Shown: piece by piece, positions 8,983 through 58,260 of the stretch
Numbering within the stretch: the first letter of the stretch is position 1
Layout: each line of letters starts with the position of its first letter
From: Betaproteobacteria bacterium
GTDB lineage: Bacteria > Pseudomonadota > Gammaproteobacteria > Burkholderiales > SG8-41
Direction: 5' to 3'
Length of the DNA stretch: 64,000 nt
Assembly (NCBI GenBank): GCA_900299145.1
Contig: OMIN01000111.1
Span: 1-64,000, forward strand
Position numbers and translations under genes: made by a program
The notes under the pieces: model-generated
Told to the model about the DNA's origin: nothing
The model's input: the letters and a program-made list of their open reading frames with translations, nothing else
The model's database searches: none

Positions 8983-9000
8983 AATGAAAACAAATACTTA
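8983..9000 (+). repeat. Dispersed AT-rich 18-mer, copy 1 (aatgaaaacaaatactta)
   Basis: Near-identical to other intergenic copies; 17 bp after stop of the preceding CDS. Confidence 0.85.
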
Positions 9001-9194
9001 TGGATCGGCCGATTCAATTCGGCCTTGCCCCCATAGAACTCTAGACCGGTGGTGTAGCTTGGGATCCCTATCGATTGGGGTGGGGTAACAACAAATATTT
9101 ATGCCAAGCCATGTGATCGACCTTCGGGAAGCTCAGGACGTCTGAGCGATGGTCTAGATATCGAGTATGACTCGAGGAATCTTGAAGAAAAGTA

Positions 9195-9968
9195 CTACTG
9201 CGTCTGCACGTAACGGCTACTCATGACCCCATTTAGGAGTGCCTGCGCAAACTGGGTCACCGCGTCAAAGTAGCGAAGATATTGTTTGCTTCCGATCTTA
9301 ATTGGTTCGCCAATAGATAGACCCAGCCTAGGTGCTTCCTGCGAGGATTTTTCATCCGCAATTCCAGTGCGATGCATAAGGCAGTTTCTAACATAATTCA
9401 ATTCAGAAAGTATGACAGACGTTTCTGAAGGAATGGTTAGTTCTACTTCGAGAACGGACATGAGAACGCGATAGCCTTCCGAGACGGATTGGCCGCTGCG
9501 CGCATGTGTTTCAAGGCGTTTATAGATACGACGGGCTTCCAATTCGGGAGGTGGTTGCGAGCGTGATTTAGGTAACTTGATTCCGGCTCTCTTCACCTTC
9601 GTTACAGCATTAGTATCTTTGCTCAGAATAAGTACGGCAGTGTCCTCTACGGCAACTTCGACTGCAACCCAAAGTCCAATAATGCCGTGCCGGTTGATTG
9701 GATCGTAGTCGTTCGAGATTATTTCTTCTGCCCATTCCGCCAGGCCAGATTGTTCGAGAAGAAGTTTGTTGATCGCCACTTCTGATTGATTATTGCGCCT
9801 GAATTCTCGTCTAGTAAGTTCGAGCAATGGACCTTGTTTGGCCAATGCAACGATTGCGCGCATGAGAATAGACGCAATTCTTGTTTCCTCACCTACCAAG
9901 GTTACACATTGTCCCGCTGGGCCGATAACCCAATTCAAAGCGTCGGAGTTTGGAATGGAGGAAAGCAT
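9195..9968 (-). CDS. Hypothetical protein with HEPN-like Rx4H motif
   Basis: LNYVRNCLMHRTGIADE contains R-N-C-L-M-H; isolated gene unrelated to the surrounding metabolic genes. Confidence 0.55.
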   Translation of the reverse strand: MLSSIPNSDALNWVIGPAGQCVTLVGEETRIASILMRAIVALAKQGPLLELTRREFRRNNQSEVAINKLLLEQSGLAEWAEEIISNDYDPINRHGIIGLWVAVEVAVEDTAVLILSKDTNAVTKVKRAGIKLPKSRSQPPPELEARRIYKRLETHARSGQSVSEGYRVLMSVLEVELTIPSETSVILSELNYVRNCLMHRTGIADEKSSQEAPRLGLSIGEPIKIGSKQYLRYFDAVTQFAQALLNGVMSSRYVQTQ

Positions 9969-10174
9969 TGGCGATTAAAAGCTTTAATGTAGTGTCGCGA
10001 GTAGGCCGATCGGCTTAGAGGCGCACTGTAGCGGCTAGTCTATAGAAGGTGGTCCATCATAACTATGCCTAGATTATCTTCTGAACATCTGTAGATGTCT
10101 CGCCTGTCTTACTTCTCCAACACCGGCAACGAATGAAAGTAAAGGGTCAGGCTCGAATTCAAATCGCCGAATTG

Positions 10175-10192
10175 TAAGTATCTGTTTTTATT
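10175..10192 (-). repeat. Dispersed AT-rich 18-mer, copy 2 (rc aataaaaacagatactta)
   Basis: taagtatctgtttttatt on + strand. Confidence 0.85.
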
Positions 10193-10326
10193 AAATTATT
10201 TTTTGCGGCTCTCTGGCTGGAATTTTTCCCAGCCCAGTTCTCCACTCATCAATCTCGCCACGGAATTCGACGAAGCAAACGAGCTATTTTCGTACCGGAA
10301 AACCGGAGCCGCGCTTTAACCGCCAA

Positions 10327-11334
10327 TCACTGCGGCTGTATTCCCGCCAGTTTGACCAGCTTCCGGGTGTGTTCGATATCATCCGCCAGATGCTTCGCCA
10401 GTTCGGCGGGCGTGCTGGAGCGCGGTTCCGAGTTGACGGCGATGAGCGCGTCGCGCAACGCGGGCGCGGCGAGTTGTTTCACCAGTGCGCCATTGAGCGC
10501 CGCGATGATGTCTTGCGGCGTGCCGGCGGGCACAAAAATGCCGTACCAGCCGGACATTTCGTAGCCGGGCAACGCGGCTTCGTCCATGGTCGGCACGTGT
10601 GGCAGCTTCGGCGCGCGGTTGGTGCCGCTGACGGCCAGCGCACGCACTTTGCCGGAGGTGATGAAGGGCAGCGCGGTGATGATCGGGCCAAAATAAAAGT
10701 CGAGTTGGCCGGAAATCAGGTCAACATACAGCCCGGCCCCCGCGCCCTTGTAAGGGATGTGCGTGGCCTCGATTTTCGCCATCGATTTCAAAAGCTCCAC
10801 GTTCAGATGCGGGCCTGCGCCGACGCCGGTTGAGCCGAAGTTGAGCTGGTTGCCTCGCTGACGCGCGAGTGCGATAAATTCTTTGACGGTTTTCGCTGGT
10901 ATCGAAGGGTGCACCACCAGCACACTGTGGGTTTTACATAGCAGCGACACCGGCGCGAAATCACGCGTCGGGTCGCCAAGCGGTTTCGCAACCATCACCA
11001 TCGATGACGCCATGCTGGCGCCGCCGAGAATCAGCGTGTAGCCGTCCGCAGCGGATTTCGAGACAAAGGCGCGCGCCACCGCGCCGCCCGAACCGCCGCG
11101 ATTGTCGACGATGAATTGCTGGCCGAAAGTCTCCGTGAGCTTCTGCGCAACAAGCCGCCCATGGGCATCGTCCGAGCCGCCGGGGGCGTTGCCGACGACT
11201 AGGCGCACGGCTTTGGCGGGGTAGGCTTGTCCTGTAGAAGCGGGCTGGGCGTGGGCGGATGCCGCCACGATCAATGAGGCCACTGCCGTTGCGGACAGAA
11301 GGGAAGTCCGCACATTGGCACGATGGTTTTTCAT
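10327..11334 (-). CDS. Bug/TTT-family substrate-binding protein
   Basis: YPAKAVRLVVGNAPGGSDDAHGRLVAQKLTETFGQQFIVDNRGG; HIPYKGAGAGLYVDLISG. Confidence 0.9.
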   Translation of the reverse strand: MKNHRANVRTSLLSATAVASLIVAASAHAQPASTGQAYPAKAVRLVVGNAPGGSDDAHGRLVAQKLTETFGQQFIVDNRGGSGGAVARAFVSKSAADGYTLILGGASMASSMVMVAKPLGDPTRDFAPVSLLCKTHSVLVVHPSIPAKTVKEFIALARQRGNQLNFGSTGVGAGPHLNVELLKSMAKIEATHIPYKGAGAGLYVDLISGQLDFYFGPIITALPFITSGKVRALAVSGTNRAPKLPHVPTMDEAALPGYEMSGWYGIFVPAGTPQDIIAALNGALVKQLAAPALRDALIAVNSEPRSSTPAELAKHLADDIEHTRKLVKLAGIQPQ

Positions 11335-11700
11335 GCTTCCTCCCTGCGGGCAATGTCACAGTTCGCCGGATGCGCCAGTGGATTGTGCTGCCGGCTTCCG
11401 CGCAGCCTATGGGCTATGCAATTGGCCATGCAATTGAATTGCGTGGGCTGCGTATGGGACGATACGAGCAGCGTGCGGGGAAGTCAAAGCGGAAATTGAG
11501 GGTGCGTGACGCGAGATTCGGCAGGAATGTTTACGGAACATTGGGGCTGGGATACATTGGAATCGGCACAGGCGGATTGTTTGCAGCGTTTGTTCCCCGG
11601 AACATGGTTAGGCGCCTGCGCGGTTATCCAGCGCGAACTGGTCTGCGGGTAACGCCGGATTTTCGGTTTGGAGAAGTAGTAGGGCGTTGAAAAATAAGTC

Positions 11701-11718
11701 AATAAAAACAAATAGTTA
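11701..11718 (+). repeat. Dispersed AT-rich 18-mer, copy 3 (aataaaaacaaatagtta)
   Basis: Sequence match to consensus. Confidence 0.85.
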
Positions 11719-11933
11719 TCGAGGAAAGACTGAGGTTGCCGCTGCTCCTTTGTGCGTTGCGCGCGTTGGGCGGCAGTCGAGGATTAGGGTGGATTTAGAG
11801 TAAGGGTGCCGAACAAGATGCGTGTTTACCCTCCGACTTTGCTGCGCGCAGCTTGCCCTGAGCGCCGACCTTTGGTTGAAGTTGAGGCAGGACTGCGGGC
11901 CAGCAATGGCTTAACCAGATCAAGGAACAAGGA

Positions 11934-13130
11934 ATGAGTCACGAGTACCCGTTTGAAGGCCTGCGCGTCGTGGACGCGAGCCAGGGCATTGTCGGCCCCA
12001 GTGCAGGCATGATGCTGGCGCGTTACGGCGCCGACGTGATCAAGGTGGAGCCGCAGGCGGGCGACTGGTCGCGCGGCATTACGGCTGGCAAGGACGGCAT
12101 GACGGCGATGGCGTTGGCGACCAACGTTGGCAAGCGCAGTATCGCGCTGGATCTCAAGCAGCGCGAAGGGGCTGATCTGCTGCACAAGCTGGCGAAGCGC
12201 GCCGATGTGTTCATCGAAAATTTTCGAACCGGCGTGATGGCGCGGCTGGGTTTTGATTACCCGAGTGTTTGCGCGTACAACCCCGGCGTGGTGTATCTGT
12301 CGGTCACCGGGTTTGGGCAGGTGGGGCCGATGCAGTCACAGCCTGCCACCGACGCGATTTTGCAGGCGTTTGCCGGCATGATGAATATCAACAAGGGCCG
12401 GCAGGATGGCCTGCCGCACCGGCTGGAATGCTGGCCGATTGATGTGTTCAGCGGGCAAATGGCGTTTCAGGCAGTGGCGATGGCGCTCTATGCGCGGCGC
12501 GATTCCGGACGTGGACGTTACATTGACGCGAGTCTGTTGCAGGGCGCCACGGCGTTGCAAACCGTGCGGCTCATCGAGCATGTGATGACAGGCGGCGCAA
12601 CGGTGGCGGGCGGGTCTTTCCCGATCGCCACGTTTCGCACCACCGATGGGCTGGTCAACGTGAGTGTGCTGAAAGATCATTTGTGGCCGCCGTTTTGCCG
12701 CATGATCGGTCGGCCGGAATGGGCGGATGAGCCTTCAATGGCGACCGGCGCGGGGCGGCGCGCGCGCGGCGAGGAAATTCTACGCGTGGCCGCCGAGGCC
12801 TTTGCCACGCAGCCATCAGAATTCTGGTGCGCGCAAATGCGCGAAGCGGGCATATTGAACGAGCGCGTGAATACCTTTGGCGATTTGTTTTCGCACAAGC
12901 AAACCGAAGACACGGGCATCTTCACGTGGTCAGAGCAGGCCGTGGCCGGGCGTGTGCCGCATCCCAATATTCCCGGCCCGCAGCCGCTGGTGGCCGACGC
13001 GCCCAGCTCACGCGTGCCGCGCATCGGCGAGCACACGCGGGACGTGCTGGGGGAACTGGGCTACGCGGTTGAGGATATCGAGCGGATGTTCGCGCAGGCG
13101 GTGGTGTTTGGGCCGGTCGCCAATACCTGA
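11934..13130 (+). CDS. CaiB/BaiF family (family III) CoA-transferase
   Basis: PFEGLRVVDASQGIVGPSAGMMLARYGADVIKVEP; ENFRTGVMARLGFDY. Confidence 0.92.
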   Translation: MSHEYPFEGLRVVDASQGIVGPSAGMMLARYGADVIKVEPQAGDWSRGITAGKDGMTAMALATNVGKRSIALDLKQREGADLLHKLAKRADVFIENFRTGVMARLGFDYPSVCAYNPGVVYLSVTGFGQVGPMQSQPATDAILQAFAGMMNINKGRQDGLPHRLECWPIDVFSGQMAFQAVAMALYARRDSGRGRYIDASLLQGATALQTVRLIEHVMTGGATVAGGSFPIATFRTTDGLVNVSVLKDHLWPPFCRMIGRPEWADEPSMATGAGRRARGEEILRVAAEAFATQPSEFWCAQMREAGILNERVNTFGDLFSHKQTEDTGIFTWSEQAVAGRVPHPNIPGPQPLVADAPSSRVPRIGEHTRDVLGELGYAVEDIERMFAQAVVFGPVANT

Positions 13131-13132
13131 CT

Positions 13133-13243
13133 CGTCATTCCAGCGAAAGCTGGAATCCAGAAAGTAAACTGATCCGCAGGATCAAGATTTCAGACGCTTT
13201 GCATCAGGTTACGCTCTGGGTTCCAGCTTTCGCTGGAACGACG
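13133..13243. repeat. REPIN/BIME-like element: two inverted REP hairpins around about 55 bp
   Basis: cgtcattccagcgaaagctggaatccaga ... tctgggttccagctttcgctggaacgacg. Confidence 0.75.
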
Positions 13244-13281
13244 ACTACGGGGCGATCCGTTTCGCTCGAATCCCACCGACG

Positions 13282-14235
13282 TTACAACCGGATATTCGCC
13301 GCCTTGATCAGCCGCGTCCAGCGGCTGACGTCGTTTTCGCTATAGCGTTTGAGTTCGGCCGGTGTCATCACCGTGGGTTCCAGGCCTTGTTCGCCAAAGC
13401 GCTTGATGATGTCCGGGTCGCGCAGCACTTTTGCGGTCTCCGTGTTCAGCCGGGTGATGATGGCCGCTGGCGTGCCCGCTGGTGCAAATATCGCGTACCA
13501 CGTCACCAGTTCGTAGCCCGGCAAAGTGTCGGCGATGGGTGGAATGTCGGGTAGCGCAGGCGAGCGCCGCGTGCCGCCGGTGCCGAGCATTTTGAGGCGC
13601 CCCGCCTGCACATGGGCGAGCACGGTGGGAATGCTGCTCCACGCCAGTTGTACGCGCCCGGCGATCAAATCCGTCATCGATGGCGCGGTGCCTTTGTAGG
13701 GCACGTGCACCATGTCTACGCCCGCCAGCGACTTGAACAACTCGCCGCCCAGATGCGGCGAGGTGCCGGTACCCACCGAGGAGAAATTCAATTGCCCCGG
13801 CTTGGCCTTGGCGACAGCGATCAATTCCTTGACCGAATTCGCGCCCACGCCGGGGTGCACCACCAGCACCTGCGGGCTCATCACCAGCATCGCCACCGGC
13901 GCGAAATCTTTCTGTGGGTCGTATGGCACTTTGGGCAGAATCAGTGGCGCGAGAAACGTGCCGCCGCCGGTGCCAAACAGCAGGTTGTACCCGTCGGGTG
14001 ACGCGCGCGCAATCAGCTCGCTGCCGATCACCGTGCCCGCACCGGGGCGGTTGTCGACCACCATCTGCTGGCCGAGCAGTTCGGTGAGCTTGGCCGACAC
14101 GGCGCGGCCGGCAAAATCCGTGGGGCCGCCCGGCGGATAAGGCACGACGAGGCGGATGGGTTTGGTGGGATAGCCTTGCGCCATCGCGAATGGCGCCGCA
14201 CCCAGCAACAGACCCAGCACACTGATGAATCGCAT
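13282..14235 (-). CDS. Bug/TTT-family substrate-binding protein
   Basis: YPTKPIRLVVPYPPGGPTDFAGRAVSAKLTELLGQQMVVDNRPGAGTVIGSE. Confidence 0.92.
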   Translation of the reverse strand: MRFISVLGLLLGAAPFAMAQGYPTKPIRLVVPYPPGGPTDFAGRAVSAKLTELLGQQMVVDNRPGAGTVIGSELIARASPDGYNLLFGTGGGTFLAPLILPKVPYDPQKDFAPVAMLVMSPQVLVVHPGVGANSVKELIAVAKAKPGQLNFSSVGTGTSPHLGGELFKSLAGVDMVHVPYKGTAPSMTDLIAGRVQLAWSSIPTVLAHVQAGRLKMLGTGGTRRSPALPDIPPIADTLPGYELVTWYAIFAPAGTPAAIITRLNTETAKVLRDPDIIKRFGEQGLEPTVMTPAELKRYSENDVSRWTRLIKAANIRL

Positions 14236-14337
14236 TTAATGGCTCCAGACGAATTTGGGCCGCGCATTTTAACCTTCAATTCATGGGGCGCGAAGGCCGG
14301 CCATGACGCGTTACAATCCGGGCAAAGCCGCAAAGCC

Positions 14338-15315
14338 ATGCTCGCCTTCATCTTCCGCCGTCTGGCCCAAAGTCTGCTCGCGCTATTCGTGATGTCCGCG
14401 CTGGTGTTTCTGGGCGTTTACGCCATCGGCAACCCGGTGGATATTCTGATCAATCCGCAGGCGGATCAGGCGGAAATCGCGCGTGTCACCGCGTCGCTGG
14501 GCCTCGATAAACCGGTGTGGGTGCAGTACTGGCACTTTCTGACGGCGGCGTTCTCGGGAGATCTGGGCAAATCGTTTGCCTCCAACGTGCCCGCGTTGCA
14601 ATTGATCCTGCAGCGCATGCCCGCCACCGTGGAGCTGGCGCTGGTGGCGATGGTCATCGCCATTGTGATTGGTTTGCCGCTGGGTTTGTGGGCGGGACTA
14701 AAGCCCGATTCTTTCGCGGCTAAATCCATTATGGCGGGTTCCATCCTTGGCTTTTCGCTGCCGACATTCTGGGTGGGGCTGATGCTGATTATGATTTTCT
14801 CGGTATGGCTGGGCGTCTTGCCCTCCACGGGGCGCGGCGCCACGGTGGAGGTGTTGGGCCTGCATTTGAGTTTTCTCACGTGGGACGGCCTGAAGCATCT
14901 GTTGATGCCGGCAACGAATCTCGCGCTGTTCAAGCTCTCGCTGCTGGTTCGCCTTACGCGCGCCGGCACGCGTGAGGCGATGGTGCAGGATTACGTGCGT
15001 TTCGCGCGCGCCAAGGGTGTGCCGGAAAATCGGGTGGTGTCGGTACACGTGCTGAAAAACATTCTCATTCCAATTGTTACCGTGGTGGGGCTGGAATTCG
15101 GTTCGCTGATTGCATTCTCCATCATCACCGAAACCGTGTTTGCCTGGCCGGGCATGGGCAAGCTGCTGATTGATTCGATCAACGTGCTTGACCGGCCGGT
15201 GATCGTGGCCTATCTGATGATTATTGTTTTCCTGTTTATCTTTATCAACCTGCTGGTGGATATTCTGTACACCGCGCTCGATCCACGCGTGCGCGTGGCG
15301 GGGGTGCGGGCATGA
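14338..15315 (+). CDS. ABC transporter permease (DppB-type)
   Basis: MLAFIFRRLAQSLLALFVMSALVF; YVRFARAKGVPENRVVSVHVLKNILIPIVTVVGLEFG; start set at ATG 14338. Confidence 0.88.
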   Translation: MLAFIFRRLAQSLLALFVMSALVFLGVYAIGNPVDILINPQADQAEIARVTASLGLDKPVWVQYWHFLTAAFSGDLGKSFASNVPALQLILQRMPATVELALVAMVIAIVIGLPLGLWAGLKPDSFAAKSIMAGSILGFSLPTFWVGLMLIMIFSVWLGVLPSTGRGATVEVLGLHLSFLTWDGLKHLLMPATNLALFKLSLLVRLTRAGTREAMVQDYVRFARAKGVPENRVVSVHVLKNILIPIVTVVGLEFGSLIAFSIITETVFAWPGMGKLLIDSINVLDRPVIVAYLMIIVFLFIFINLLVDILYTALDPRVRVAGVRA

Positions 15316-16220
15316 GCGTGCCGGTGGAGGCGACTGTGAAACCCGGCGCCGCCCGTTCGCCATTGCGCGAATTTGTGGCGAGTTACGCGCGCAGCCGCAT
15401 TGCCGTGGCGGCGCTAATTGTGCTGCTCCTGATACTGGCCGTGGCGGTGGGCGCGCCGTTGATCTCGCCGCAAAACCCGTATGATTTGAAGCAACTCGAC
15501 ATCATGGACAGCAAACTCGCGCCCGGTTCTAAAAGTGGCGCGGGCTGGATATACCTGCTCGGCAGCGACGATCAGGGCCGCGACATGCTGTCGGCGATTT
15601 TTTACGGCTTGCGCATCAGCCTGGGCGTTGGTGTGTTGTCGACAGTGGCGGCGCTGGCCATCGGCATTGTGGTCGGTTTGATCTCGGCCTACAAAGGCGG
15701 GTGGACGGACGCGGTCATCATGCGCATTGTCGATCTGCAACTGTCGTTTCCGGCGATATTAATCGCGCTGATCCTGCTCGCGGTAACGGGGCAGGGCGTC
15801 GACAAAATTGTCATCGCACTGATCACCGTGCAGTGGGCCTACTACGCGCGCACGGTGCGCGGCGCCGCGCTCGTCGAAAAGCGCAAGGAATACGTCGATG
15901 CTGCGTTGTGCCTCGGCTACAGCGCCGTGCGCATCGTGCTGCGACACATCATGCCCAACGTGCTGCCGCCGCTGATCGTGGTGGCTACGGTGCAGGTCGC
16001 ACACGCGATCGCGCTCGAAGCCACGCTATCGTTTCTAGGCTTGGGCATGCCGATCACGTCACCGTCGCTGGGGCTGCTGATTTCCAACGGCTTCACGCAT
16101 TTACTGTCGGGCAAATACTGGATCAGCTTTTTCCCCGGCATCGCGTTGCTGGTGACGATAGTCGCGATCAACCTTGTGGGCGATCAGTTGCGCGACGTGC
16201 TGAATCCGCGGCTGAAGTAA
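15312..16220 (+). CDS. ABC transporter permease (DppC-type)
   Basis: LLGSDDQGRDMLSAIFYGLRISLGVGVL; EATLSFLGLGMP; 4-nt overlap with the upstream permease. Confidence 0.9.
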   Translation: MSVPVEATVKPGAARSPLREFVASYARSRIAVAALIVLLLILAVAVGAPLISPQNPYDLKQLDIMDSKLAPGSKSGAGWIYLLGSDDQGRDMLSAIFYGLRISLGVGVLSTVAALAIGIVVGLISAYKGGWTDAVIMRIVDLQLSFPAILIALILLAVTGQGVDKIVIALITVQWAYYARTVRGAALVEKRKEYVDAALCLGYSAVRIVLRHIMPNVLPPLIVVATVQVAHAIALEATLSFLGLGMPITSPSLGLLISNGFTHLLSGKYWISFFPGIALLVTIVAINLVGDQLRDVLNPRLK

Positions 16221-16226
16221 AAACTC

Positions 16227-16244
16227 AATAAAAACAAATACTTA
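16227..16244 (+). repeat. Dispersed AT-rich 18-mer, copy 4 (aataaaaacaaatactta)
   Basis: Exact consensus, 7 bp after stop of the permease gene. Confidence 0.9.
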
Positions 16245-16333
16245 CGATTTTCCTGCAAGGGATACTACGGGGGGGCGCCGGCTGCGAGAAACTCACGCAG
16301 CCGGACGCGCTACGCGCAAAACGCGAAATTGCG

Positions 16334-21329: not shown

Positions 21330-21347
21330 TAACTATTTGTTTTTATT
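21330..21347 (-). repeat. Dispersed AT-rich 18-mer, copy 5 (rc aataaaaacaaatagtta)
   Basis: taactatttgtttttatt, 33 bp after stop of MFS. Confidence 0.88.
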
Positions 21348-25429: not shown

Positions 25430-25546
25430 GTGGCGTTCTCACGATTGTAAGGGTGCACAGGATGGACATGCTGCTTGGCAAGTGTGTCGCGACTCTGTAG
25501 TCTCTCAAAAGCACCTGATGCAGAAAAACAGTTGAGGAGAAATGCC

Positions 25547-26539
25547 ATGAGCGCCTACGCCCGTATTTACATCGCGATTGCACGGTTGCTGCCGCCGCTC
25601 ATGCTGACGTGCGCCGGCGCCGCGCTGGCGCAATCGGTGAATTTTCCCACCCGTCCGGTGCGCTACATCATTCCGTTTCCGCCCGGCGGCAGCACCGATC
25701 CGATGGGGCGCTTTATCGCCACCAAGTTATCCGAGCGTTTGGGGCAGACGGTGGTGGTGGACAACCGGCCCGGCGGCAACACCGTGATCGGCACCGAAGT
25801 GCTGGCGCGGTCACAACCGGATGGCTACACCATCGGCTGGGCGGGCGCGTCGATGTTCAGCACGCCGAGTCTGATTGCCAATTTGCCGTACGACGTGCTG
25901 AAAGATTTTGCCGCCATCGCCACCATTTCCACCGGGCGTAGCGTGCTGGTGGTACACCCGACCGTGCCGGCGAATACGCTGCAGGAGTTCACTGCGTTGA
26001 TTAAATCCAAGCCGGGGGAATTCAATTACGGCTCATCGGGCGTGGGTACCAATACGCATCTGTCGGGGGAACTCTTCAATCAGATGGCGGGCACCAAAAT
26101 GATTCATATCCCCTACAAGGGGTCGGGCCCTGTAACCACCGACTTGCTGGCCGGGCGTGTGCAGCTGTCGTTTCAGGTGCCGATTACGGTGATTTCGTTT
26201 GTCAGTGCCGGGCGGCTGCGCGCGCTGGCGATGAGCGGCGAGGGACGCCTGCCCGCTATGCCCACGGTGCCGACGTTTACCGAAGCCGGCATGAAGGGTT
26301 TCGGCCTGACCAGCGTCACGGGCCTGGTGACACCGGCAAAAGTGCCACGCGCAATCATCAATAAAATCAACACTGAAGTGAACGCGGTGCTGGCGTTGCC
26401 CGCGACAACCGAGTTCATGGCCAAGCAGGGCGCGGAGCCGTTTACGTCGACGCCGGAGCAGGCGGCGGCGGTGATACGCGAAGAACTAGCGCGCTATGCA
26501 AAGATTATCAAGACGGGCGGAATCGTCTACAAGCCGTAG
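25547..26539 (+). CDS. Bug/TTT-family substrate-binding protein
   Basis: FPTRPVRYIIPFPPGGSTDPMGRFIATKLSERLGQTVVVDNRPGGNTVIGTE. Confidence 0.92.
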   Translation: MSAYARIYIAIARLLPPLMLTCAGAALAQSVNFPTRPVRYIIPFPPGGSTDPMGRFIATKLSERLGQTVVVDNRPGGNTVIGTEVLARSQPDGYTIGWAGASMFSTPSLIANLPYDVLKDFAAIATISTGRSVLVVHPTVPANTLQEFTALIKSKPGEFNYGSSGVGTNTHLSGELFNQMAGTKMIHIPYKGSGPVTTDLLAGRVQLSFQVPITVISFVSAGRLRALAMSGEGRLPAMPTVPTFTEAGMKGFGLTSVTGLVTPAKVPRAIINKINTEVNAVLALPATTEFMAKQGAEPFTSTPEQAAAVIREELARYAKIIKTGGIVYKP

Positions 26540-26548: not shown

Positions 26549-26566
26549 TAAGTATTTGATTTTATT
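26549..26566 (-). repeat. Dispersed AT-rich 18-mer, copy 6 (rc aataaaatcaaatactta)
   Basis: taagtatttgattttatt, 10 bp after stop. Confidence 0.88.
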
Positions 26567-28588: not shown

Positions 28589-28652
28589 CTTTGATACTTT
28601 GCGCGAGCGAGGTTCAGCGCGGTCATGACTTAAAGGTATTATAAAAATACCC

Positions 28653-28669
28653 AATAAATCAAATACTTA
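28653..28669 (+). repeat. Dispersed AT-rich motif, copy 7 (aataaatcaaatactta)
   Basis: Consensus match with 1-nt deletion. Confidence 0.82.
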
Positions 28670-32173: not shown

Positions 32174-32191
32174 TAACTATTTGTTTTTATT
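32174..32191 (-). repeat. Dispersed AT-rich 18-mer, copy 8 (rc aataaaaacaaatagtta)
   Basis: taactatttgtttttatt between stop of 32199-33530(-) and start of 31182-32171(-). Confidence 0.88.
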
Positions 32192-35319: not shown

Positions 35320-36293
35320 GGTTCCCCGGCAAGCTGATCGCGGCGGCGCTGTTGCCAGTGCTCGCCGTGACGGCCGCCTTGGCGCAGGACAGGCCCGCTG
35401 GCTATCCGCTGCGCCCGATACGCATCATAGTCTCGTCGGTGCCTGGCGGCGGCCTGGACATGATCAGCCGCACCGTTGCGCAGATGCTGACCGACCGCTG
35501 GGGGCAAACGGTGGTGGTGGACAATCGCACCGGCGGCGGCACCATCGTCGCCACGGAAATCAGCGCGCGCGCCGCGCCCGATGGGTATACGCTGTTCGCG
35601 GGCACCGATACGCTGAATATCGTCGGCGCCACCCGGCGCGTGCCGTTTGATGTGCGCAAGGCATTCGACCCGGTGGTTCCAATGACGCAGCAGCCTTACA
35701 TCCTGATGACGCAGCCGGGATTGCCGGTGAAAAACATCAGGGAACTTGCGGCGTATTCGCTGTCGCAGCCGCTCAGTTACGGCAGCTCCGGCGTGGGCAC
35801 GGCGGGGCATTTGGGCATGGAGCAATTGGCCGTGCTGGCGAAGGCAAAGTTTGTTCACGTGCCGTACAAGGGTGGCGCGGCATCCATGCTGGGCGTGCTG
35901 GGCGGCGAAATCCATATGTACCCGGGCGTGCTGCTGTCCGCGGCTTCGGCCATCAAGACGGGCAAGATGCGCACGCTGGCCGCGATGGGGTTAAAGCGCA
36001 TTCCCGTGTTGCCTGATCTGCCCACGGTGGCGGAGCAGGGTTTTCCCGGATTCAAAATCGTCAACAGTTATAGCCTATATGCGCCGGCGGGCACGCCAAA
36101 ACCGATATTGCTGGCGTTAAGCCGCGCGGTGGGCGAATTCATGGCCTCGCCCAAAATGTCTCAGAAGCTGATCAGCGAAGGCAGCCATCCACCCGATGGC
36201 GCGATGACGCCAGACGAATTCCGCGCTTATACGTTGCGCGAGTATGCCGAGGTTGAGCGGCAGGTCAAAAACCTCGACGTGAAAATTTACTAG
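35316..36293 (+). CDS. Bug/TTT-family substrate-binding protein
   Basis: YPLRPIRIIVSSVPGGGLDMISRTVAQMLTDRWGQTVVVDNRTGGGTIVATE; GTG start overlaps TGA of the SBP gene (GTGA). Confidence 0.88.
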   Translation: MRFPGKLIAAALLPVLAVTAALAQDRPAGYPLRPIRIIVSSVPGGGLDMISRTVAQMLTDRWGQTVVVDNRTGGGTIVATEISARAAPDGYTLFAGTDTLNIVGATRRVPFDVRKAFDPVVPMTQQPYILMTQPGLPVKNIRELAAYSLSQPLSYGSSGVGTAGHLGMEQLAVLAKAKFVHVPYKGGAASMLGVLGGEIHMYPGVLLSAASAIKTGKMRTLAAMGLKRIPVLPDLPTVAEQGFPGFKIVNSYSLYAPAGTPKPILLALSRAVGEFMASPKMSQKLISEGSHPPDGAMTPDEFRAYTLREYAEVERQVKNLDVKIY

Positions 36294-38008: not shown

Positions 38009-38026
38009 TTTAAAAACAGATACTTA
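38009..38026 (+). repeat. Dispersed AT-rich 18-mer, copy 9 (tttaaaaacagatactta)
   Basis: Consensus match. Confidence 0.78.
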
Positions 38027-38869: not shown

Positions 38870-39016
38870 GATGTGATCCTCCGGAGATGAGTGGGAAAGT
38901 CAGAAGTGCGGCAACGGGATCGCGCCCGTTTCAAGGGACTATACTACACGGCGCGACAAGGCACGCCCCGGGGCGTAGCCTACCGCAACGGGGCAATCGC
39001 AACGGATGGAGTGATC

Positions 39017-40015
39017 ATGCGCAAGAAGTTGAAAGTGATTTCGAAGGCGTGGGCCCGTTCCTTGATGGCGGGTGCGTGGATGCTGGCTGCAGGCACGGTG
39101 GCGGCGCAGCAACTGAACTACCCGGCGCGGCCGATCCGCTTTATCGTGTCGTATCCACCCGGCGGCAGTACCGATCCGATGGCGCGGCTGGTGGCGAACA
39201 AGCTCACGGAGCGCTGGCCGCACACGGTGGTGGTCGATAATCGTCCGGGCGGCAATACCATTATCGGCACGGAACTGGTGGCCAAGGCGCCACCGGATGG
39301 GCACACCATTTTGCTCGCGTCCTCAGCGTTTCTGAGCACGCCAAGTTTGTTTCCCAAGCTGCCGTATAACACGCTGCGCGATTTTACCGGCGTGGCCACC
39401 ATCGCCACCTCGCGCTTTGTGCTGGTGGTGACGCCCGCCATGCCGGTAAACAACCTGCAGGATTTTATCGCCTATGCCAAATCCAGGCCGGGGCAGCTGA
39501 GTTTTGCCTCGTCTGGCATCGGCGCCAACACTCACTTGTCCGCCGAACAGTTCAACCTGATGGTGGGCACGAAAATGAACCACATTCCGTATAAGGGCTC
39601 GGGCGTACTGGTGACAGACTTGATCAGTGGGCGGGTGGATCTGTCGTTTCAGGTGCCGATCACGGTGATCAGCTACATCACCAGCGGCCGGATGAAGCCG
39701 CTGGCGATTTCAGGCAATGGCCGTGCACCGGCGCTGCGCGACATTCCGACATTTACCGAAGCGGGGCTGCCAAATTTTCGCGCCGACGGCTGGTTCGGCA
39801 TCGTCGCGCCTTCGGGCACGCCCAGATTCGCGATCGAGAAACTGTCGAAGGAAGTCGCGGCTATATTGCAACTGCCGGAGTCGCGCGACTATCTGATCAA
39901 GCAGGCGTCGGAACCGCTGGTATCAACACCGGAACAGGTTAATGCGCTGATCAGGGAGGACATTGCGCGCTATGCCCAAATTATCAAGGCGGCGAATGTC
40001 CGCGCCGAACAGTGA
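39017..40015 (+). CDS. Bug/TTT-family substrate-binding protein
   Basis: YPARPIRFIVSYPPGGSTDPMARLVANKLTERWPHTVVVDNRPGGNTIIGTE; start at ATG 39017. Confidence 0.92.
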   Translation: MRKKLKVISKAWARSLMAGAWMLAAGTVAAQQLNYPARPIRFIVSYPPGGSTDPMARLVANKLTERWPHTVVVDNRPGGNTIIGTELVAKAPPDGHTILLASSAFLSTPSLFPKLPYNTLRDFTGVATIATSRFVLVVTPAMPVNNLQDFIAYAKSRPGQLSFASSGIGANTHLSAEQFNLMVGTKMNHIPYKGSGVLVTDLISGRVDLSFQVPITVISYITSGRMKPLAISGNGRAPALRDIPTFTEAGLPNFRADGWFGIVAPSGTPRFAIEKLSKEVAAILQLPESRDYLIKQASEPLVSTPEQVNALIREDIARYAQIIKAANVRAEQ

Positions 40016-40018: not shown

Positions 40019-40036
40019 TAACTATTTGATTTTTTT
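40019..40036 (-). repeat. Dispersed AT-rich 18-mer, copy 10 (rc aaaaaaatcaaatagtta)
   Basis: taactatttgattttttt, 4 bp after stop. Confidence 0.78.
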
Positions 40037-41675: not shown

Positions 41676-41693
41676 AATAAAAACAAATACTTA
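41676..41693 (+). repeat. Dispersed AT-rich 18-mer, copy 11 (aataaaaacaaatactta)
   Basis: Exact consensus. Confidence 0.9.
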
Positions 41694-47484: not shown

Positions 47485-47519
47485 CAACGCCCCGCCATGC
47501 GCCCGGATATCTAAAACTC

Positions 47520-47537
47520 AATAAAAACAAATACTTA
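47520..47537 (+). repeat. Dispersed AT-rich 18-mer, copy 12 (aataaaaacaaatactta)
   Basis: Exact consensus, 36 bp after stop. Confidence 0.9.
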
Positions 47538-50027: not shown

Positions 50028-50075
50028 TTGTTCGCGATTACGCTGTTACTGAATAAAACTTAAAGGAGCTTGAAC

Positions 50076-50282: not shown

Positions 50283-50310
50283 ATTTTGCATAATTAATTG
50301 ATAAAAATAT

Positions 50311-50329
50311 CAATTATATCAAATACTTA
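50311..50329 (+). repeat. Dispersed AT-rich motif, copy 13 (caattatatcaaatactta)
   Basis: Core atcaaatactta conserved, 29 bp after stop. Confidence 0.78.
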
Positions 50330-50335
50330 TAATAA

Positions 50336-51598: not shown

Positions 51599-52546
51599 AT
51601 GGGGGCATACCTGGTCAGACGCACGGTGCTGTTCTTCGTGACGGTGCTGGGGGTATCCATACTCATCTTCGGGCTGATGCGCATTGTGCCCGGCAATATC
51701 GCCGATATTCTGTTCGAATCATCGGGTTTTATCGATCAGGTGCAAAAGGCGAAGATCGAGGCCGAGCTTGGCCTCGACAAACCGCTGTTGCAGCAATATT
51801 TGAGCTGGATCGGCGGTTTGGCGAAGGGCGATTTCGGTTTCTCATACATGAGCGAGAGACCCGCAACTGCGGAAATTCTTGCGCGCCTGCCGGTGACCCT
51901 GAAGCTTGGCGGATTAACGCTGTTTTTTACGGTGCTCTTTGGCATTCCGCTTGGCGTGTGGAGCGCGGTCAAGCAAAACGGCTTCGTTGATAACACGCTG
52001 CGAGTGGTGACGTTAAGCGCACTCTCGCTGCCGTCATTCTGGTGTGGCCTGCTGGTGCTGATGTTCGCGGTGCACGTGTTCGGCACGATACCGATTTACT
52101 CGAATGAGCCGCGTGGCGTCTGGCAAGAACTGGCGTTGCTGTCCATTCCCGCGCTGGTGGTGGGCTTTCGCAGCTCCGCGCTGATTGTACGCCTCACGCG
52201 GTCGTCGATGCTGGAAGTGATGCGCCAGGACTACATTCGCACCGCGCGCGCCAAGGGTGCCTCCGAATCATCCATCAACTACCATCACGCGCTGAAAAAC
52301 GCGATTCTGCCGATCATCACACTGCTCGGTATCGAAGCCTCGCACCTGCTTGGTGGGCTGGTGGTGATCGAAACCGTGTTTAATATCCCCGGTCTGGGCC
52401 GCTATCTCGTGGAGGCGATTCGCTGGCGTGATTACCCCATCGTACAAAACCTCGTGCTGTTCAGCGCCTTTGCCGTGGTGATCACCAATTTCATTGTTGA
52501 CATGTTGTATGCCGTGATCGATCCGCGCATCAAGTATTCGGATTGA
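51599..52546 (+). CDS. ABC transporter permease (DppB-type)
   Basis: MGAYLVRRTVLFFVTVLGVSILIFGLMRIVPGN; start at ATG 51599 rather than the ORF-track start. Confidence 0.88.
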   Translation: MGAYLVRRTVLFFVTVLGVSILIFGLMRIVPGNIADILFESSGFIDQVQKAKIEAELGLDKPLLQQYLSWIGGLAKGDFGFSYMSERPATAEILARLPVTLKLGGLTLFFTVLFGIPLGVWSAVKQNGFVDNTLRVVTLSALSLPSFWCGLLVLMFAVHVFGTIPIYSNEPRGVWQELALLSIPALVVGFRSSALIVRLTRSSMLEVMRQDYIRTARAKGASESSINYHHALKNAILPIITLLGIEASHLLGGLVVIETVFNIPGLGRYLVEAIRWRDYPIVQNLVLFSAFAVVITNFIVDMLYAVIDPRIKYSD

Positions 52547-52580
52547 TCGCAGCGGCAAACGAGCGTAAACGGAGAGCCCC

Positions 52581-53543
52581 ATGAGCCCACCGCCCAGTGA
52601 ATCTGCCGCCAGCACCATCGGTGGCCATAGTGAATCCGGCCCGGCAGCCAACGTGAGCTTCGATGCGGAGTTGGCCAGGGCCGGCGCCAATGTCAATTCC
52701 CGCTGGGGCATGGCACTGTTTCTGGCCAAACGCTATCCGCTCGGGGGCGTGGGACTGGCTATCGTGACGCTGTTTATTCTGGTGGCCGTGTTTGCGCCGT
52801 TGATTACCGGTCATGACCCGCTGGCGACCAATCCGTCGATTTCACTCGCCAAACCTGCCGCCGCGCATCTGATGGGCACCGATTTCATGGGGCGCGATCT
52901 GTTCAGCCGCGTGATCTACGGGGCGCGCACATCCCTTGCGGTGGCGTTCGGAGCAACGCTGCTCGGCGTGGTGTTTGGCGTGCTGATCGGGCTCGCCTCG
53001 GGTTATCTTGGGGGCTGGGTGGATTTGACCACGCAGCGCGTCATCGACATGCTGCAGGCGCTACCCACGCTGATTCTGGCGATGGCCATGGCGGCGGCGC
53101 TGGGGCCATCGCTCACCAACACCATCATTGCTATTGCGATTCCCAAACTGCCGAGCATTGCGCGCGTGATTCGGGCCAGCACGCTATCGTTGCGCGAAAT
53201 GCCGTTCGTCGAGGCCGCACGCGCCATGGGCATGAGCGAGATGCGCATCGCGTTGCGTCATATCCTGCCCAATACGCTGGCGCCGCTGATCGTGCTGGCG
53301 ACCGCTGGCCTCGGCAGTGCGATTCTGGTCGAGGCGTCGTTGTCGTTCCTTGGCCTCGGCGTGCCGGAGCCGCACCCGTCGTGGGGACGCATGCTGTCGG
53401 AGTCTGCCGCGGAATACGTGCGCACTGCGCCGTGGCTGGTGATTTTTCCCGGGCTTGCCATTACCTTCGCCGTGTTTGGCACCAACCTGTTGGGCGATGC
53501 CTTGCGCGACATTCTCGATCCGCGCCAGCGCACGTCAAACTGA
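52581..53543 (+). CDS. ABC transporter permease (DppC-type)
   Basis: [51 protein letters not shown]. Confidence 0.9.
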
Positions 53544-53560
53544 GCGAACCGGAATTATCC

Positions 53561-54622
53561 ATGGAAAAGGTTGCTGAAAAAGTGTCTGCGGATACGCCAG
53601 CCACGGCGAAGACCGTGCTCGAAGTGGAAGGACTCAAGACTTACTTCTTCGTGCGTCAGGGCGTGGTCAAGGCGGTGGACGATATTTCGTTTTCGCTTAA
53701 GGCCGGTGAAAAGCTCGCCATCGTTGGCGAATCTGGCTGCGGCAAAAGCATGACAGCGCTGTCGATCCTGCGGCTGGTGCCCGATCCGCCAGGGCGTATC
53801 GTCGCAGGCAGCATCAAACTTGACGGCAAGGACCTGCTCAAGCTATCGGATGCCGAGATGCGCAAGATACGCGGCAACCAGATATCGATGATTTTTCAGG
53901 AACCGATGACCTCGCTGAATCCCGTGTGGTCCATCGGTAACCAGATCAGTGAAGCGGTCATGCTGCATCAGAATGTGTCGCGTCACGAGGCCTTCGACAA
54001 GGCAGTGGAAATGTTGAAGCTGGTGAAAATCCCGGAGCCTTCGCGGCGCGCGCGCGAGTATCCGCATCAATTGTCCGGTGGCATGCGCCAGCGCGCAATG
54101 ACGGCGATGGCGCTGGCGTGTAATCCGCACGTGTTGTTGGCCGACGAACCGACAACAGCGCTGGATGTCACCATACAGGCGCAGATTCTTGATTTGATTC
54201 TCGAATTGCAGGAGCGGCTGGGAACGGCGGTGGTGCTGATTACGCATGATCTGGGTGTGGTGGCGGAAACTGCAAAGCGGGTGATCGTGATGTACGGCGG
54301 TAAAATCGTGGAAGAAGCCGCCGTGGAAGACCTGTTCGAGAACCCGCTGCACCCGTATACGCAGGGCCTGCTGGCGGCCGTGCCGCATCTCGCCGCGTTA
54401 TCAACGCAGGCGGGCGAAGCGGCCTCACGCAACCGCTTGAAGGAGATTCCCGGCATTGTGCCGGCACTGGTAAATCTGCCCAAGGGATGCGTATTCGCGC
54501 CGCGCTGCCCGCACGCCAGCGACGTGTGCCGCAACGAATATCCGCCGTATGAAATGAAACAACCAGGGCATGGCGTGGCGTGCTGGCATGCCGGCAAGCT
54601 GGCGGGAGGCGCACATGCCTGA
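53561..54622 (+). CDS. Dipeptide ABC transporter ATP-binding protein (DppD/OppD-type)
   Basis: [29 protein letters not shown] Walker [36 protein letters not shown]. Confidence 0.93.
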
Positions 54623-55628
54623 CGGCGCGAACGACATGAACGCGAACGTGCCCGTGCTGGACGTGCGCAATCTCAAAAAGCATTTTCCGGTGCGCAAGGG
54701 CCTGTTACGCAAGGTAGCCGGGCACGTTTATGCAGTCGATGGCGTGAGCTTTTCCATCGCGCGTGGTCAGACGCTTGGGCTGGTGGGTGAAAGCGGCTGC
54801 GGCAAATCCACCGTGGCGCGCGCGGTGATCCGGCTGATCGAACCCACATCTGGCGAGGTGCGCATTCTTGGGCGAGATATTCTGAGCCTGAGCAAGGACG
54901 AGCTGCGCGAGAGCCGCCGTCAGGCGCAGATCATTTTCCAGGATCCATTTTCATCACTCAACCCGCGTATGTCCGCCGGCGAAATCGTCGGCGAACCGCT
55001 GCTGGTGCACGGCATCGGCAACAAAAAGGAGCGCGAGGAACGTGTCGCCGCGCTGTTTGACCGCGTGGGCCTGCGCGCCTCACAAATGGGCAGTCTGCCG
55101 CATCAATTTTCCGGCGGGCAGCGCCAGCGCATCGGGATTGCGAGGGCGCTCGCGCTCGATCCGCAGCTCATCATTGGCGACGAGCCGGTGTCGGCCCTGG
55201 ATGTGTCGATACAGGCGCAAGTCATCAACCTCCTGATGGATCTGCAGGCAGAAAAGAACCTGTCGTATCTCTTTATCGCGCACGATCTTGCCGTGGTCGA
55301 GCACATCAGCCACCGCGTTGCAGTGATGTATTTGGGCCGCGTGGTCGAACACGCCGAAACCCGCGCACTATTTTCCAGCCCGCAGCACCCGTATACCGAA
55401 GCACTGCTGTCGGCGGTGCCCGTGCCCAATCCGCGTTTAAAACGCCAGAAACGGTTGGTGCAGGGTGACGTGCCCAGCCCGATCAACCCGCCGCCGGGCT
55501 GCCACTTTCATACCCGCTGCCCGTATGCGACCGAGCAGTGCAAGGTGGAGGTGCCGCCGTTGGTTGAAGTCGCGCCGGATCATTGGGCGGCTTGTCATTT
55601 GCGCAAGCCCCTTGTGGCTGTGGTGTAA
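54615..55628 (+). CDS. Dipeptide ABC transporter ATP-binding protein (DppF/OppF-type)
   Basis: [65 protein letters not shown]. Confidence 0.93.
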
Positions 55629-55634
55629 ATATCC

Positions 55635-55652
55635 AATAAAAACAAATACTTA
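55635..55652 (+). repeat. Dispersed AT-rich 18-mer, copy 14 (aataaaaacaaatactta)
   Basis: Exact consensus, 7 bp after stop. Confidence 0.9.
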
Positions 55653-55820
55653 AAGGCAGTCAGCTTTTCCTGACTCCGATCCTCTCGTGGAGGTTGAAGG
55701 GTGGAATGCCTTTTCCCCTCCGGAGAAGGGGTGGGATGAGGGAAGTTTTTTTAGATTTCCCGCAAGTTAATGACAGGCCCTAAGAGCAACACATTCACCG
55801 TTTAATTGAGAACAAGAGTT

Positions 55821-55976
55821 GTGACTACACATACAGACAATACGGCCCGGAAGTCTCTGGTGCTTGTTCTTGGTGCTGGTGCCAGTAAGGAGGTCAATTT
55901 ACCGATGGGGAGTGAATTAAAGGAGGAATTTAGCGGCAAATCTAATTCGAGATTTGCCTATGTGCCCAGTTGTTAG
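55821..55976 (+). pseudogene. Truncated N-terminal fragment of a SIR2-like NAD-binding (defence-type) protein
   Basis: GTG-initiated 51-codon frame VTTHTDNTARKSLVLVLGAGASKEVNLPMGSELKEEF...*; GAGAS...LPMGxELK matches the SIR2-like N-terminus. Confidence 0.6.
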
Positions 55977-56006
55977 AATACAGAATAGACGATACGGACA
56001 CCGCTG

Positions 56007-56537
56007 ATGATTTATTTTGTCGAACTCGCCTTTTCCCAACCCGAACGCGAAGCGGAATGGAATCATTGGTATTCGACGCATCTCGATGTGCTGCTGTCGG
56101 TGCCGGGCTTTTCGACGGCGCAGCGGTTTGTGAGCACCATGCCATGCCGCGCGCCTTATCTGGCGGCGTATAGTGTGACGGATGCGGCTGTGTTTGACAG
56201 CGTACCGTACCGGCAGCGCGGTGGCCGTGGGTCGCCAGGGGCGTGGGCGCCGTTGATGATTAACTGGGATCGCAATCTGTTTGGCGGACTTGCGCAAATG
56301 CCCGCTGTCGGTCCCGAGCAGTATCTGGCGGTGATGGATGATGTACCGGGACTGGCGCCATTCCTAAATTTGAAGCCACATGATTTGCACTGCGTCGGGC
56401 TGGATCGCACGGTACATCGCCGAAGGTTAGCAGTGCTGGCAGCAGGCGAGTACATTGCACTTTCGGGAAAATCCGAAGCGAACATGCGTTTTTACAAGGC
56501 ATTAACGCCTCAATTGCGCGCCACGCCGTGCGCCTGA
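56007..56537 (+). CDS. EthD-like / dimeric alpha-beta barrel hypothetical protein
   Basis: MIYFVELAFSQPEREAEWNHWYSTHLDVLLSVPGFSTAQRFVST. Confidence 0.65.
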   Translation: MIYFVELAFSQPEREAEWNHWYSTHLDVLLSVPGFSTAQRFVSTMPCRAPYLAAYSVTDAAVFDSVPYRQRGGRGSPGAWAPLMINWDRNLFGGLAQMPAVGPEQYLAVMDDVPGLAPFLNLKPHDLHCVGLDRTVHRRRLAVLAAGEYIALSGKSEANMRFYKALTPQLRATPCA

Positions 56538-56559
56538 GCATGCGGATTCTGGCCAGTTC

Positions 56560-58230
56560 ATGTTCCCACTCCTGACGCGCCACAATCCGCGGCGGGCCAA
56601 TGCGTTTTACGCCGCTGGCCACTGGCGTGATGACACGCTGTACGCGCTGCTACGGCAACATGCAAATACGCGCCCTCAACGGTATGCGCTTCGCGACAGC
56701 GCGCGCCGGCTGACCTGGCGTGAACTCGCGGATTGGGTGGACGTGGTGGCGCAGGATTTGCACGAGGCGGGGTTGAAGCCCGGCGACCGTGTATCCGTGT
56801 GGCTGCCCAATCGCGCGGAAACCATTGCGGTGACGCTGGCGTGTTCGCGCATGGGTTATGTGTGCAATCCGTCACTGCACCAGACTTACACCGCGGACGA
56901 TGTGTGCGGGTTGCTCGGGCGCATACAAAGCCGCGTGTTGTTCATGCAACCGGGCTTTGGTGGGGATGCGGCGCGCAGCGGCAATGACCTCGTGGGGAAG
57001 GCGTATCAGGTGTCCTCCATTCGCCGCGTTTATGAAGTGCAACCGGTGGCCCGCGCCGGTGTGCCACGCTGTGCGGGTGGCGCCCCTGGGTTGCCGCCGC
57101 CGGTGGAGGATCCGGACAAAATCGTACTGCTGGCGTTTACATCTGGCACCACCGGCGAGCCGAAAGGCGTGATGCATTCGGATAACACGCTGCTTGCCAA
57201 CGCGCGGGCGATGGCCCGCGACTGGCGGCATCATGAGGATATCGTGCTCTTTACCATGAGCCCACTGACGCACGCCATCGGCACGATTGCCATGGCGCAA
57301 TCGCTGGTGTCGGGCTTTGAACTGGTGGTGAACGATGTGCCAGCAGGCTTGAAGCCGCTCGACTGGATTATTGAAACCGGCGCAAACTATGTGATGGGCG
57401 TGCCCACGCATGCGATTGATCTGCTGGCGGAAGCGCGGCGGCGCGGTGGCGGCGCGCCCGCCACGGGCGGAGTGAGGCTGGGCGCGGTGAAGATTTTTTA
57501 CATGGGCGGCTCGGCGATTCCGCGCGAGACGGTGCGCGAATTGCGCGCGATGAATATCGTACCGCAAAATGTTTATGGCATGACGGAAAACGGCGCACAC
57601 CAGTACACGCTGCCTGATGATGACGAACTAACCATCGAGGAAACCTGTGGTGCGGCTTGCCCCGGCTACGAAGTGAAAATCTGGAATCCGGACAACATGG
57701 ATGAAGCACTACCCACGGGTGAGGTCGGCGAAATCGGCGGGCGGGGCGCGTGCCTTATGCTGGGTTACTTTAACAATCAAACGGCGACTGAGCAGTCGTT
57801 CAACAACGATGGCTGGTTCATGAGTGGCGATCTGGGGCGTCTGGATGCCGCTGGGCGGCTCATCATCGTAGGTCGTAAAAAGGACATTATTATTCGCGGC
57901 GGCCGCAACATTCATCCGGCGAAGATCGAGGACCTCGCGCGCGCCCACCCGGCGGTGCAAAAGGCCGCCGCATTTGCCGTGGCCGATGCGCGGCTGGGCG
58001 AAAAAGTGTGCCTTGCCGTGGTGCCGCACGAGGGCTGCGCAGTGCAGCCGGACGAACTGCTCGCGCACCTGGCCGCGCGCGGGCTGTCAAAATACGATAT
58101 GCCCGAATACTTCATTGCGCTTAATGCGTTGCCGTTGACGGCCAGCGGGAAAATACTGAAGCGCGAATTGGTGGAGCAGGTGCGGCGTGGCGACATCGTG
58201 CCCCGGCCGGTGCGATGGCAGGCAAGTTGA
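56560..58230 (+). CDS. Acyl-CoA synthetase / AMP-dependent ligase
   Basis: LLAFTSGTTGEPKGVMHSDNTLLANAR; GWFMSGDLGRLDAAGRLIIVGRKKDIIIRGGRNIHP; SGKILKREL. Confidence 0.93.
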   Translation: MFPLLTRHNPRRANAFYAAGHWRDDTLYALLRQHANTRPQRYALRDSARRLTWRELADWVDVVAQDLHEAGLKPGDRVSVWLPNRAETIAVTLACSRMGYVCNPSLHQTYTADDVCGLLGRIQSRVLFMQPGFGGDAARSGNDLVGKAYQVSSIRRVYEVQPVARAGVPRCAGGAPGLPPPVEDPDKIVLLAFTSGTTGEPKGVMHSDNTLLANARAMARDWRHHEDIVLFTMSPLTHAIGTIAMAQSLVSGFELVVNDVPAGLKPLDWIIETGANYVMGVPTHAIDLLAEARRRGGGAPATGGVRLGAVKIFYMGGSAIPRETVRELRAMNIVPQNVYGMTENGAHQYTLPDDDELTIEETCGAACPGYEVKIWNPDNMDEALPTGEVGEIGGRGACLMLGYFNNQTATEQSFNNDGWFMSGDLGRLDAAGRLIIVGRKKDIIIRGGRNIHPAKIEDLARAHPAVQKAAAFAVADARLGEKVCLAVVPHEGCAVQPDELLAHLAARGLSKYDMPEYFIALNALPLTASGKILKRELVEQVRRGDIVPRPVRWQAS

Positions 58231-58244
58231 TACGGAGATTTTTG

Positions 58245-58260
58245 TAAGTATCTGTTTTAT
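58245..58260 (-). repeat. Dispersed AT-rich motif, copy 15 (rc ataaaacagatactta), directly abutting the next ATG
   Basis: taagtatctgttttat immediately before ATG 58261. Confidence 0.78.

What the first reader, a model, noticed from the sequence alone, without database searches (positions are those of the whole stretch)
8983..58260. Dispersed AT-rich intergenic repeat AATAAAA(A/T)CA(A/G)ATA(C/G)TTA, about 15 copies in 64 kb
Seen directly: near-identical 17-19-nt motifs at 8983(+), 10175(-), 11701(+), 16227(+), 21330(-), 26549(-), 28653(+), 32174(-), 38009(+), 40019(-), 41676(+), 47520(+), 50311(+), 55635(+), 58245(-). All are intergenic. By my count 14 of 15 lie within about 150 bp downstream of a stop codon, several within 4-17 bp, in both orientations relative to the gene. 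The motif is strikingly AT-rich in a GC-rich genome, is not palindromic, has no T-tailed stem and matches no terminator. Inference: a genome-wide selected or mobile short element, at a local density of about one per 4 kb.
Basis: partly seen in the sequence, partly recalled or inferred. Interest (0 to 1): 0.85.

Follow-up and report, generated by a model that had tools for sequence, protein, structure and literature searches.

The report
Genome-wide IHF-type DNA-bending sites after genes
The repeated AT-rich motif is most likely a roughly 36-base landing site for IHF, a protein that bends DNA sharply; it occurs about 1,500 times in this uncultured bacterium, mostly just after the ends of genes, is kept there by selection, and is found at this density in only a few related bacteria.

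Summary
The repeat is real. The window holds 16 copies (chance 0.03), and the whole genome 1,097 (<=2 mismatches) against 1 for the reversed pattern. A blind matrix shows it is longer than described: an A-tract, 8 bases, then WAWCAR-NNNN-TTR, about 36 bp. That is the IHF consensus WATCARNNNNTTR with the A-tract at the lambda attP H' spacing. In phage lambda the matrix's three best places are cosB I1, a known IHF site, and two in the IHF-stimulated pL upstream region (0 of 400 shuffled matrices do this). The genome encodes IhfA and IhfB; no HU gene was found. It is not a mobile element: flanks are unrelated, with no subfamilies or flanking palindromes. Sites persist at the same gene ends across species while flanks are scrambled (37/52 versus 6/170). 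They abut stop codons, avoid divergent gaps and each other, and occur in either orientation. Dense use occurs in several genera of one Burkholderiales family and, apparently independently, in one genome of another. Best reading: IHF as sequence-positioned chromosome architecture or topological boundary between transcription units, comparable to enterobacterial RIB/BIME-1 elements but without palindromes. Binding is inferred, not measured; the function is the weaker step.

The parts
4430..4466 (+).
   Evidence: 39.1 bits
8972..9008 (+). IHF-type site (core 8983-9000)
   Evidence: 45.2 bits
10167..10203 (-). IHF-type site (core 10175-10192)
   Evidence: 52.5 bits
11690..11726 (+). IHF-type site (core 11701-11718), divergent gap
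   Evidence: 47.4 bits
16216..16252 (+). IHF-type site (core 16227-16244), 6 bp after a stop
   Evidence: 52.3 bits
21322..21358 (-). IHF-type site (core 21330-21347)
   Evidence: 47.9 bits
26541..26577 (-). IHF-type site (core 26549-26566), convergent gap
   Evidence: 52.4 bits
28641..28677 (+). IHF-type site (core 28652-28669), convergent gap
   Evidence: 41.0 bits
32166..32202 (-). IHF-type site (core 32174-32191); kept at the same gene end in L032
   Evidence: 46.9 bits
37998..38034 (+). IHF-type site (core 38009-38026); kept in L032 and L034 at other distances from the stop
   Evidence: 46.3 bits
40011..40047 (-). IHF-type site (core 40019-40036), convergent gap; kept in L031, L033
   Evidence: 39.1 bits
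41665..41701 (+). IHF-type site (core 41676-41693); kept in L031, L032, L034
   Evidence: 46.7 bits
47509..47545 (+). IHF-type site (core 47520-47537); kept in L031, L032 with scrambled flanks
   Evidence: 44.1 bits
50301..50337 (+). IHF-type site (core 50312-50329), convergent gap; kept in L031, L033
   Evidence: 50.4 bits
55624..55660 (+). IHF-type site (core 55635-55652), 6 bp after a stop
   Evidence: 43.0 bits
58237..58273 (-). IHF-type site (core 58245-58262)
   Evidence: 37.0 bits
63052..63088 (+). weaker matrix hit (core 63063-63080), inside a called CDS near a gene junction
   Evidence: 26.2 bits
104..140 (-). weaker matrix hit (core 112-129), upstream of the first called gene
   Evidence: 20.5 bits

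Best explanation
Each copy is a high-affinity binding site for the cell's own integration host factor (IhfA-IhfB). IHF is expected to wrap about 36 bp and bend it by about 160 degrees (inferred; not measured here). About 1,500 such bends, spaced irregularly but repelling each other below 2 kb, sit mainly in gaps after stop codons. The most likely role is chromosome architecture: positioned bends that fold the nucleoid and separate neighbouring transcription units topologically, placed where they do not disturb promoters, in bacteria where IHF is the only HU-family (DNABII) protein found. Shown here: motif, density, conservation at orthologous gene ends, position bias, spacing, match to known IHF-bound DNA. 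Inferred: binding, bending, boundary function. Likelihood: IHF site about 0.93; architectural/boundary role given that, about 0.6.
For: IHF identity: core equals the published consensus WATCARNNNNTTR with an upstream A-tract, and the footprint equals the published 35 bp (PMC8421141; matrix). A-tract start to WATCAA is 14 nt here and in lambda attP H' (AAAAAAGCATTGCTTATCAATTTGTTG, read). Top three lambda places of the blind matrix are 35745-35781 (24.8 bits), 66-102 (15.9) and 35643-35679 (12.9); 0 of 400 shuffled matrices put all three there. The second is cosB I1, an IHF site (PMC4856287); the other two lie upstream of pL, which IHF stimulates (Giladi 1998, title seen). The separate lineage G379 uses AATCAAATASTTA, the exact consensus. 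Own ihfA and ihfB are orthodox, and these are the only PF00216 genes found. Selection: 37/52 versus 6/170 orthologous gene ends, odds ratio 67; core 87% identical against 33% in the left flank. DNA-level function: beyond 10 bp from the stop the orientations are 48 same to 46 opposite. Architecture: divergent gaps depleted, 29 against 55 expected; neighbouring gaps both occupied 21% against 32% expected, P about 3e-4.
Against: No binding, bending or expression data exist for this organism. The information content (36 bits against about 13 needed to find about 1,500 sites) is far more than recognition needs, so another constraint may act too. lambda attP H' itself is not a top matrix hit. HU is not always absent where the motif is dense (G379 has HU), and two HU-less genomes of genus g4 lack the motif. 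Repulsion between sites could simply follow from marking transcription-unit ends. About 27% of divergent gaps also carry a site.
Confidence: 0.56

Rival explanations
1. IHF sites that end or block transcription: IHF bound just after a stop codon acts as a roadblock or helps Rho, replacing intrinsic terminators.
For: T-tailed hairpins are rarer at gene ends with a site: 12/126 against 48/231, P=0.007. Sites lie a median of about 21 bp from the stop in tandem gaps. REPs, parts of the comparable enterobacterial elements, facilitate Rho-dependent termination (PMC2817692).
Against: 27% of divergent gaps, which have no gene end, also carry a site. The hairpin test is crude, and the site itself takes up the space a hairpin would need.
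Confidence: 0.25
2. A binding site for a different sequence-specific protein (for example H-NS-like or another nucleoid protein) that only resembles an IHF site.
For: Information content far above what recognition needs; related genomes of genus g4 with orthodox IHF lack the motif.
Against: Consensus, A-tract spacing, footprint length and the lambda test all fit IHF; the independent lineage uses the exact IHF consensus.
Confidence: 0.06
3. A small mobile or MITE-like repeat spreading through the genome.
For: High copy number, patchy across genera.
Against: Unrelated flanks, nearly independent columns, no subfamilies, no flanking inverted repeats; the same sites persist in other species while their flanks change.
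Confidence: 0.02
4. An RNA-level 3'-end or mRNA-decay signal.
For: Position after stop codons; AU-rich.
Against: Both orientations used equally away from the stop (48:46), also present in divergent gaps; no Rfam family in the window.
Confidence: 0.03

Closest known systems
RIB/RIP elements (BIME-1) of Escherichia coli and relatives
   Same: IHF sites between genes, at 3' ends of transcription units (Boccard & Prentki 1993, title seen; PMC2817692).
   Different: Those lie between two inverted REP palindromes; here there are no palindromes and no shared flanks, and there are about 1,500 copies.
Classical IHF sites (lambda attP H', cosB I1, pL)
   Same: Same consensus, A-tract and spacing.
   Different: Those serve one local machine each; E. 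coli is described as having about 300 consensus sites (PMC8421141), while a review counts about 3,000 motif occurrences (PMC6907758).
Correia/NEMIS elements of Neisseria
   Same: Intergenic, many copies, carry an IHF site bound in vitro (PMC2229807).
   Different: They are 105-155 bp repeat elements described as MITEs; here nothing beyond the binding site is shared.

Membership tests
IHF binding site | Core WATCARNNNNTTR | tested here: met
   Bases 5-17 of the core fit; position 7 is A in 66% and T in 34%, T in most top hits of G379
IHF binding site | Upstream A-tract at the attP H' spacing, about 35-bp footprint (typical of the strongest sites) | tested here: met
   lambda H' read; PMC8421141
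IHF binding site | Matrix recovers known IHF-bound DNA elsewhere | tested here: met
   pL site coordinates rest partly on memory; attP H' not recovered among the best
IHF binding site | IHF present in the genome | tested here: met
IHF binding site | Bound and bent by IHF | not testable with these tools
   Needs gel shift and ChIP
RIB/RIP (BIME-1) | IHF site flanked by inverted REP palindromes | tested here: not met
   Longest stem across the site 5.88 against 5.79 in shuffles; flanks unrelated
RIB/RIP (BIME-1) | At 3' ends of transcription units | tested here: met
   Tandem enriched, divergent depleted, short distance to the stop; operons themselves were not mapped
MITE / small mobile repeat | Defined ends, inverted repeats, copy-to-copy homology | tested here: not met
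Intrinsic terminator | G+C-rich stem followed by T-run | tested here: not met
   Motif is A/T-rich and not self-complementary by inspection; hairpins are depleted near sites

The most novel reading that the evidence does not exclude
In a clade that lost HU, IHF has become the main sequence-positioned chromosome-folding protein, with about 1,500 near-perfect sites acting as fixed bends or topological boundaries after genes: a genome-encoded folding pattern for a bacterial nucleoid that arose more than once.
Probability: 0.3. Interest if true: 0.82.

Novelty: new variant of a known kind. Interest (0 to 1): 0.66.

Why it matters
Whether nucleoid proteins fold bacterial chromosomes at fixed places is an open question. 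Here the candidate folding sites can be read off the sequence, are dense, conserved and far above chance, and relatives (G009, genera g3, g4, g9) lack them, so the question becomes directly testable by comparison. It would also give a palindrome-free counterpart of RIB elements, suggesting that the IHF site itself, not the REP, can be the selected part.

Tried and rejected
Mobile element: no flank homology, no subfamilies, no inverted repeats. RNA family: none in the window. HU loss as the cause: within family f1 all motif-rich genomes lack HU and all seven genomes with a confirmed HU gene (G015, G017, G022, G023, G028, G033, G034) have 5 sites or fewer, but g4 lacks both and G379 has both, so only a correlation, confounded by ancestry. 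The third DNABII gene of motif-poor G009 is an IhfB paralogue, not HU. The lambda attP region alone did not separate the matrix from controls. A literature search for the published attP sequence found nothing; two key papers are not held.

Full report
Observation. The 15 copies are present as described, and a <=3-mismatch scan finds 16 against 0.03 expected. In the 5.51-Mb assembly there are 1,097 matches with up to 2 mismatches, 536 forward and 561 reverse, against 1 for the pattern read backwards. The organism is an uncultured Burkholderiales-type bacterium: the nearest named records are MAGs such as 'Burkholderiales bacterium F1-60-MAGs044', and the window carries many TctC-type receptors and CoA transferases.

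Anatomy. Aligning the sites shows the motif is longer than reported: an A-tract at -9..-4, an 8-nt spacer, the core, and an AT-rich tail to about +24. From 230 sites of >=20 bits in 863 kb, the information is 36 bits (44 relative to 60% G+C), and the density at >=16 bits is about 272 per Mb, so about 1,500 per genome, one per 3.7 kb. Finding 1,500 places in 11 Mb of strands needs only about 13 bits, so the sites are far more alike than recognition alone requires; this excess is unexplained and is the main puzzle.

Identity. Bases 5-17 of the core (counted from 0) read W-A-W-C-A-R-NNNN-T-T-R. The published IHF consensus is WATCARNNNNTTR, the bound DNA is 35 bp, and most of the strongest sites have an A-tract upstream (PMC8421141). 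In lambda attP H', read from the record, the A-tract begins 14 nt before TATCAA, as here. As an independent test the matrix, learnt only from this genome, was run over phage lambda: of 96,932 positions the best three non-overlapping places are 35745-35781, 66-102 and 35643-35679. The second is cosB I1, an IHF site between R3 and R2 (PMC4856287). The other two lie upstream of pL, a promoter stimulated by IHF (Giladi 1998, title; the exact positions of those IHF sites are from memory). None of 400 column-shuffled matrices placed all three there. attP H2 ranks 9th and H' lower, so the matrix is a special case of IHF sites, not the general one.

The protein. The genome has ihfA between pheT and a merR-type gene and ihfB between rpsA and a lapA-type gene (gene neighbours named from the translated sequence), both over NCBIfam equivalog cut-offs and close to the crystallised E. 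coli subunits. No other PF00216 gene was found.

Selection. Across congeners, a gene end with a site in this genome has one in 37 of 52 orthologous ends; a gene end without one has it in 6 of 170 (odds ratio 67, P 8e-24; pairs are not independent). In the 34 same-orientation pairs the core is 87% identical, the left flank 33% and the right flank 50%, and the distance to the stop differs. Thus sites are maintained in place while their surroundings turn over. Together with unrelated flanks, nearly independent columns and no flanking palindromes this speaks against a recently copied element.

Position. In the 863-kb sample 118 sites lie in tandem gaps (88 expected by length), 41 in convergent (45) and 29 in divergent (55) gaps; 37 fall within my CDS calls, part of them from start errors. 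The commonest arrangement is a site 6-7 bp after the stop in the same orientation, where a TAA stop becomes part of the A-tract: 38 of 51 same-orientation sites within 10 bp of the stop use TAA. Beyond 10 bp the orientations are equal (48 and 46). Sites avoid each other: adjacent occupied gaps 21% against 32% expected, spacings under 2 kb 22% against 34%. T-tailed hairpins are less common at ends with a site (12/126 against 48/231).

Distribution. In its genus 12 of 13 relatives have 154-803 matches, G009 only 16. In the same family g6 has 493, g7 120-298, g8 22-63, while g2, g3, g4, g5 and g9 have 0-19 (further g7 genomes). Of 399 genomes of the order, only G379 in another family stands out strongly (193 against 4 in the control), with the T form AATCAAATASTTA, the exact consensus, common among its best sites. 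With a general IHF pattern over 187 genomes of the class, no other genome approaches 1,017 against 24; the nearest is G566 with 616 against 180. Dense use thus appears to have arisen at least twice.

Mechanism. Equal orientation, DNA-protein anatomy and selection point to a bound protein acting on DNA. The position after genes and the mutual spacing suit architecture or topological separation of transcription units; BIMEs, of which one class carries IHF sites, are proposed supercoil barriers in E. coli (PMC6907758; PMC2817692), and IHF has been proposed to bound transcription domains in Dickeya (PMC7826290). The hairpin depletion keeps a transcription-blocking role open (0.25).

HU. Within the family the motif-rich genomes lack HU, and seven genomes with a verified HU gene lack the motif. 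HU-less g4 without the motif and HU-bearing G379 with it show that HU loss is neither necessary nor sufficient.

Verdict. A real, selected, genome-wide set of IHF-type sites: a new variant of a known kind. What is new is the scale, the near-perfect and palindrome-free form, the placement against stop codons, and the repeated origin.

Noticed in passing
G566 (family f77), whole genome: Another gammaproteobacterial genome with many general IHF-type patterns (616 against 180 reversed); not examined for position.
   Followed up: no
G379 (family f25, genus g157); L222-L231, L371-L375: Apparently independent dense IHF-type sites (193 against 4) with exact WATCAA core, in a genome that also has HU and extra IhfB-like genes.
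   Followed up: partly
G009 (genus g1), L133-L135: Congener that has almost lost the motif (16 sites), with 48% G+C in the stretches read and an extra IhfB-like paralogue.
   Followed up: partly
G010 (genus g1): 518 motif matches but no PF00216 gene found at 91% completeness; probably missing or withheld contigs.
   Followed up: no
L032, L035-L038: Public MAG records titled 'Bordetella parapertussis' group with these uncultured Burkholderiales by this locus; the species label looks wrong.
   Followed up: no
window, e.g. 13282-14235, 25475-26539, 38891-40015: At least seven TctC-type solute receptors in 64 kb, with SBP_bac_5 and CoA-transferase III genes.
   Followed up: no
PMC6907758, Table 2: The review lists WATCAANNNNTTR in the H-NS row and an H-NS-like motif in the IHF row; the two appear swapped.
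   Followed up: no
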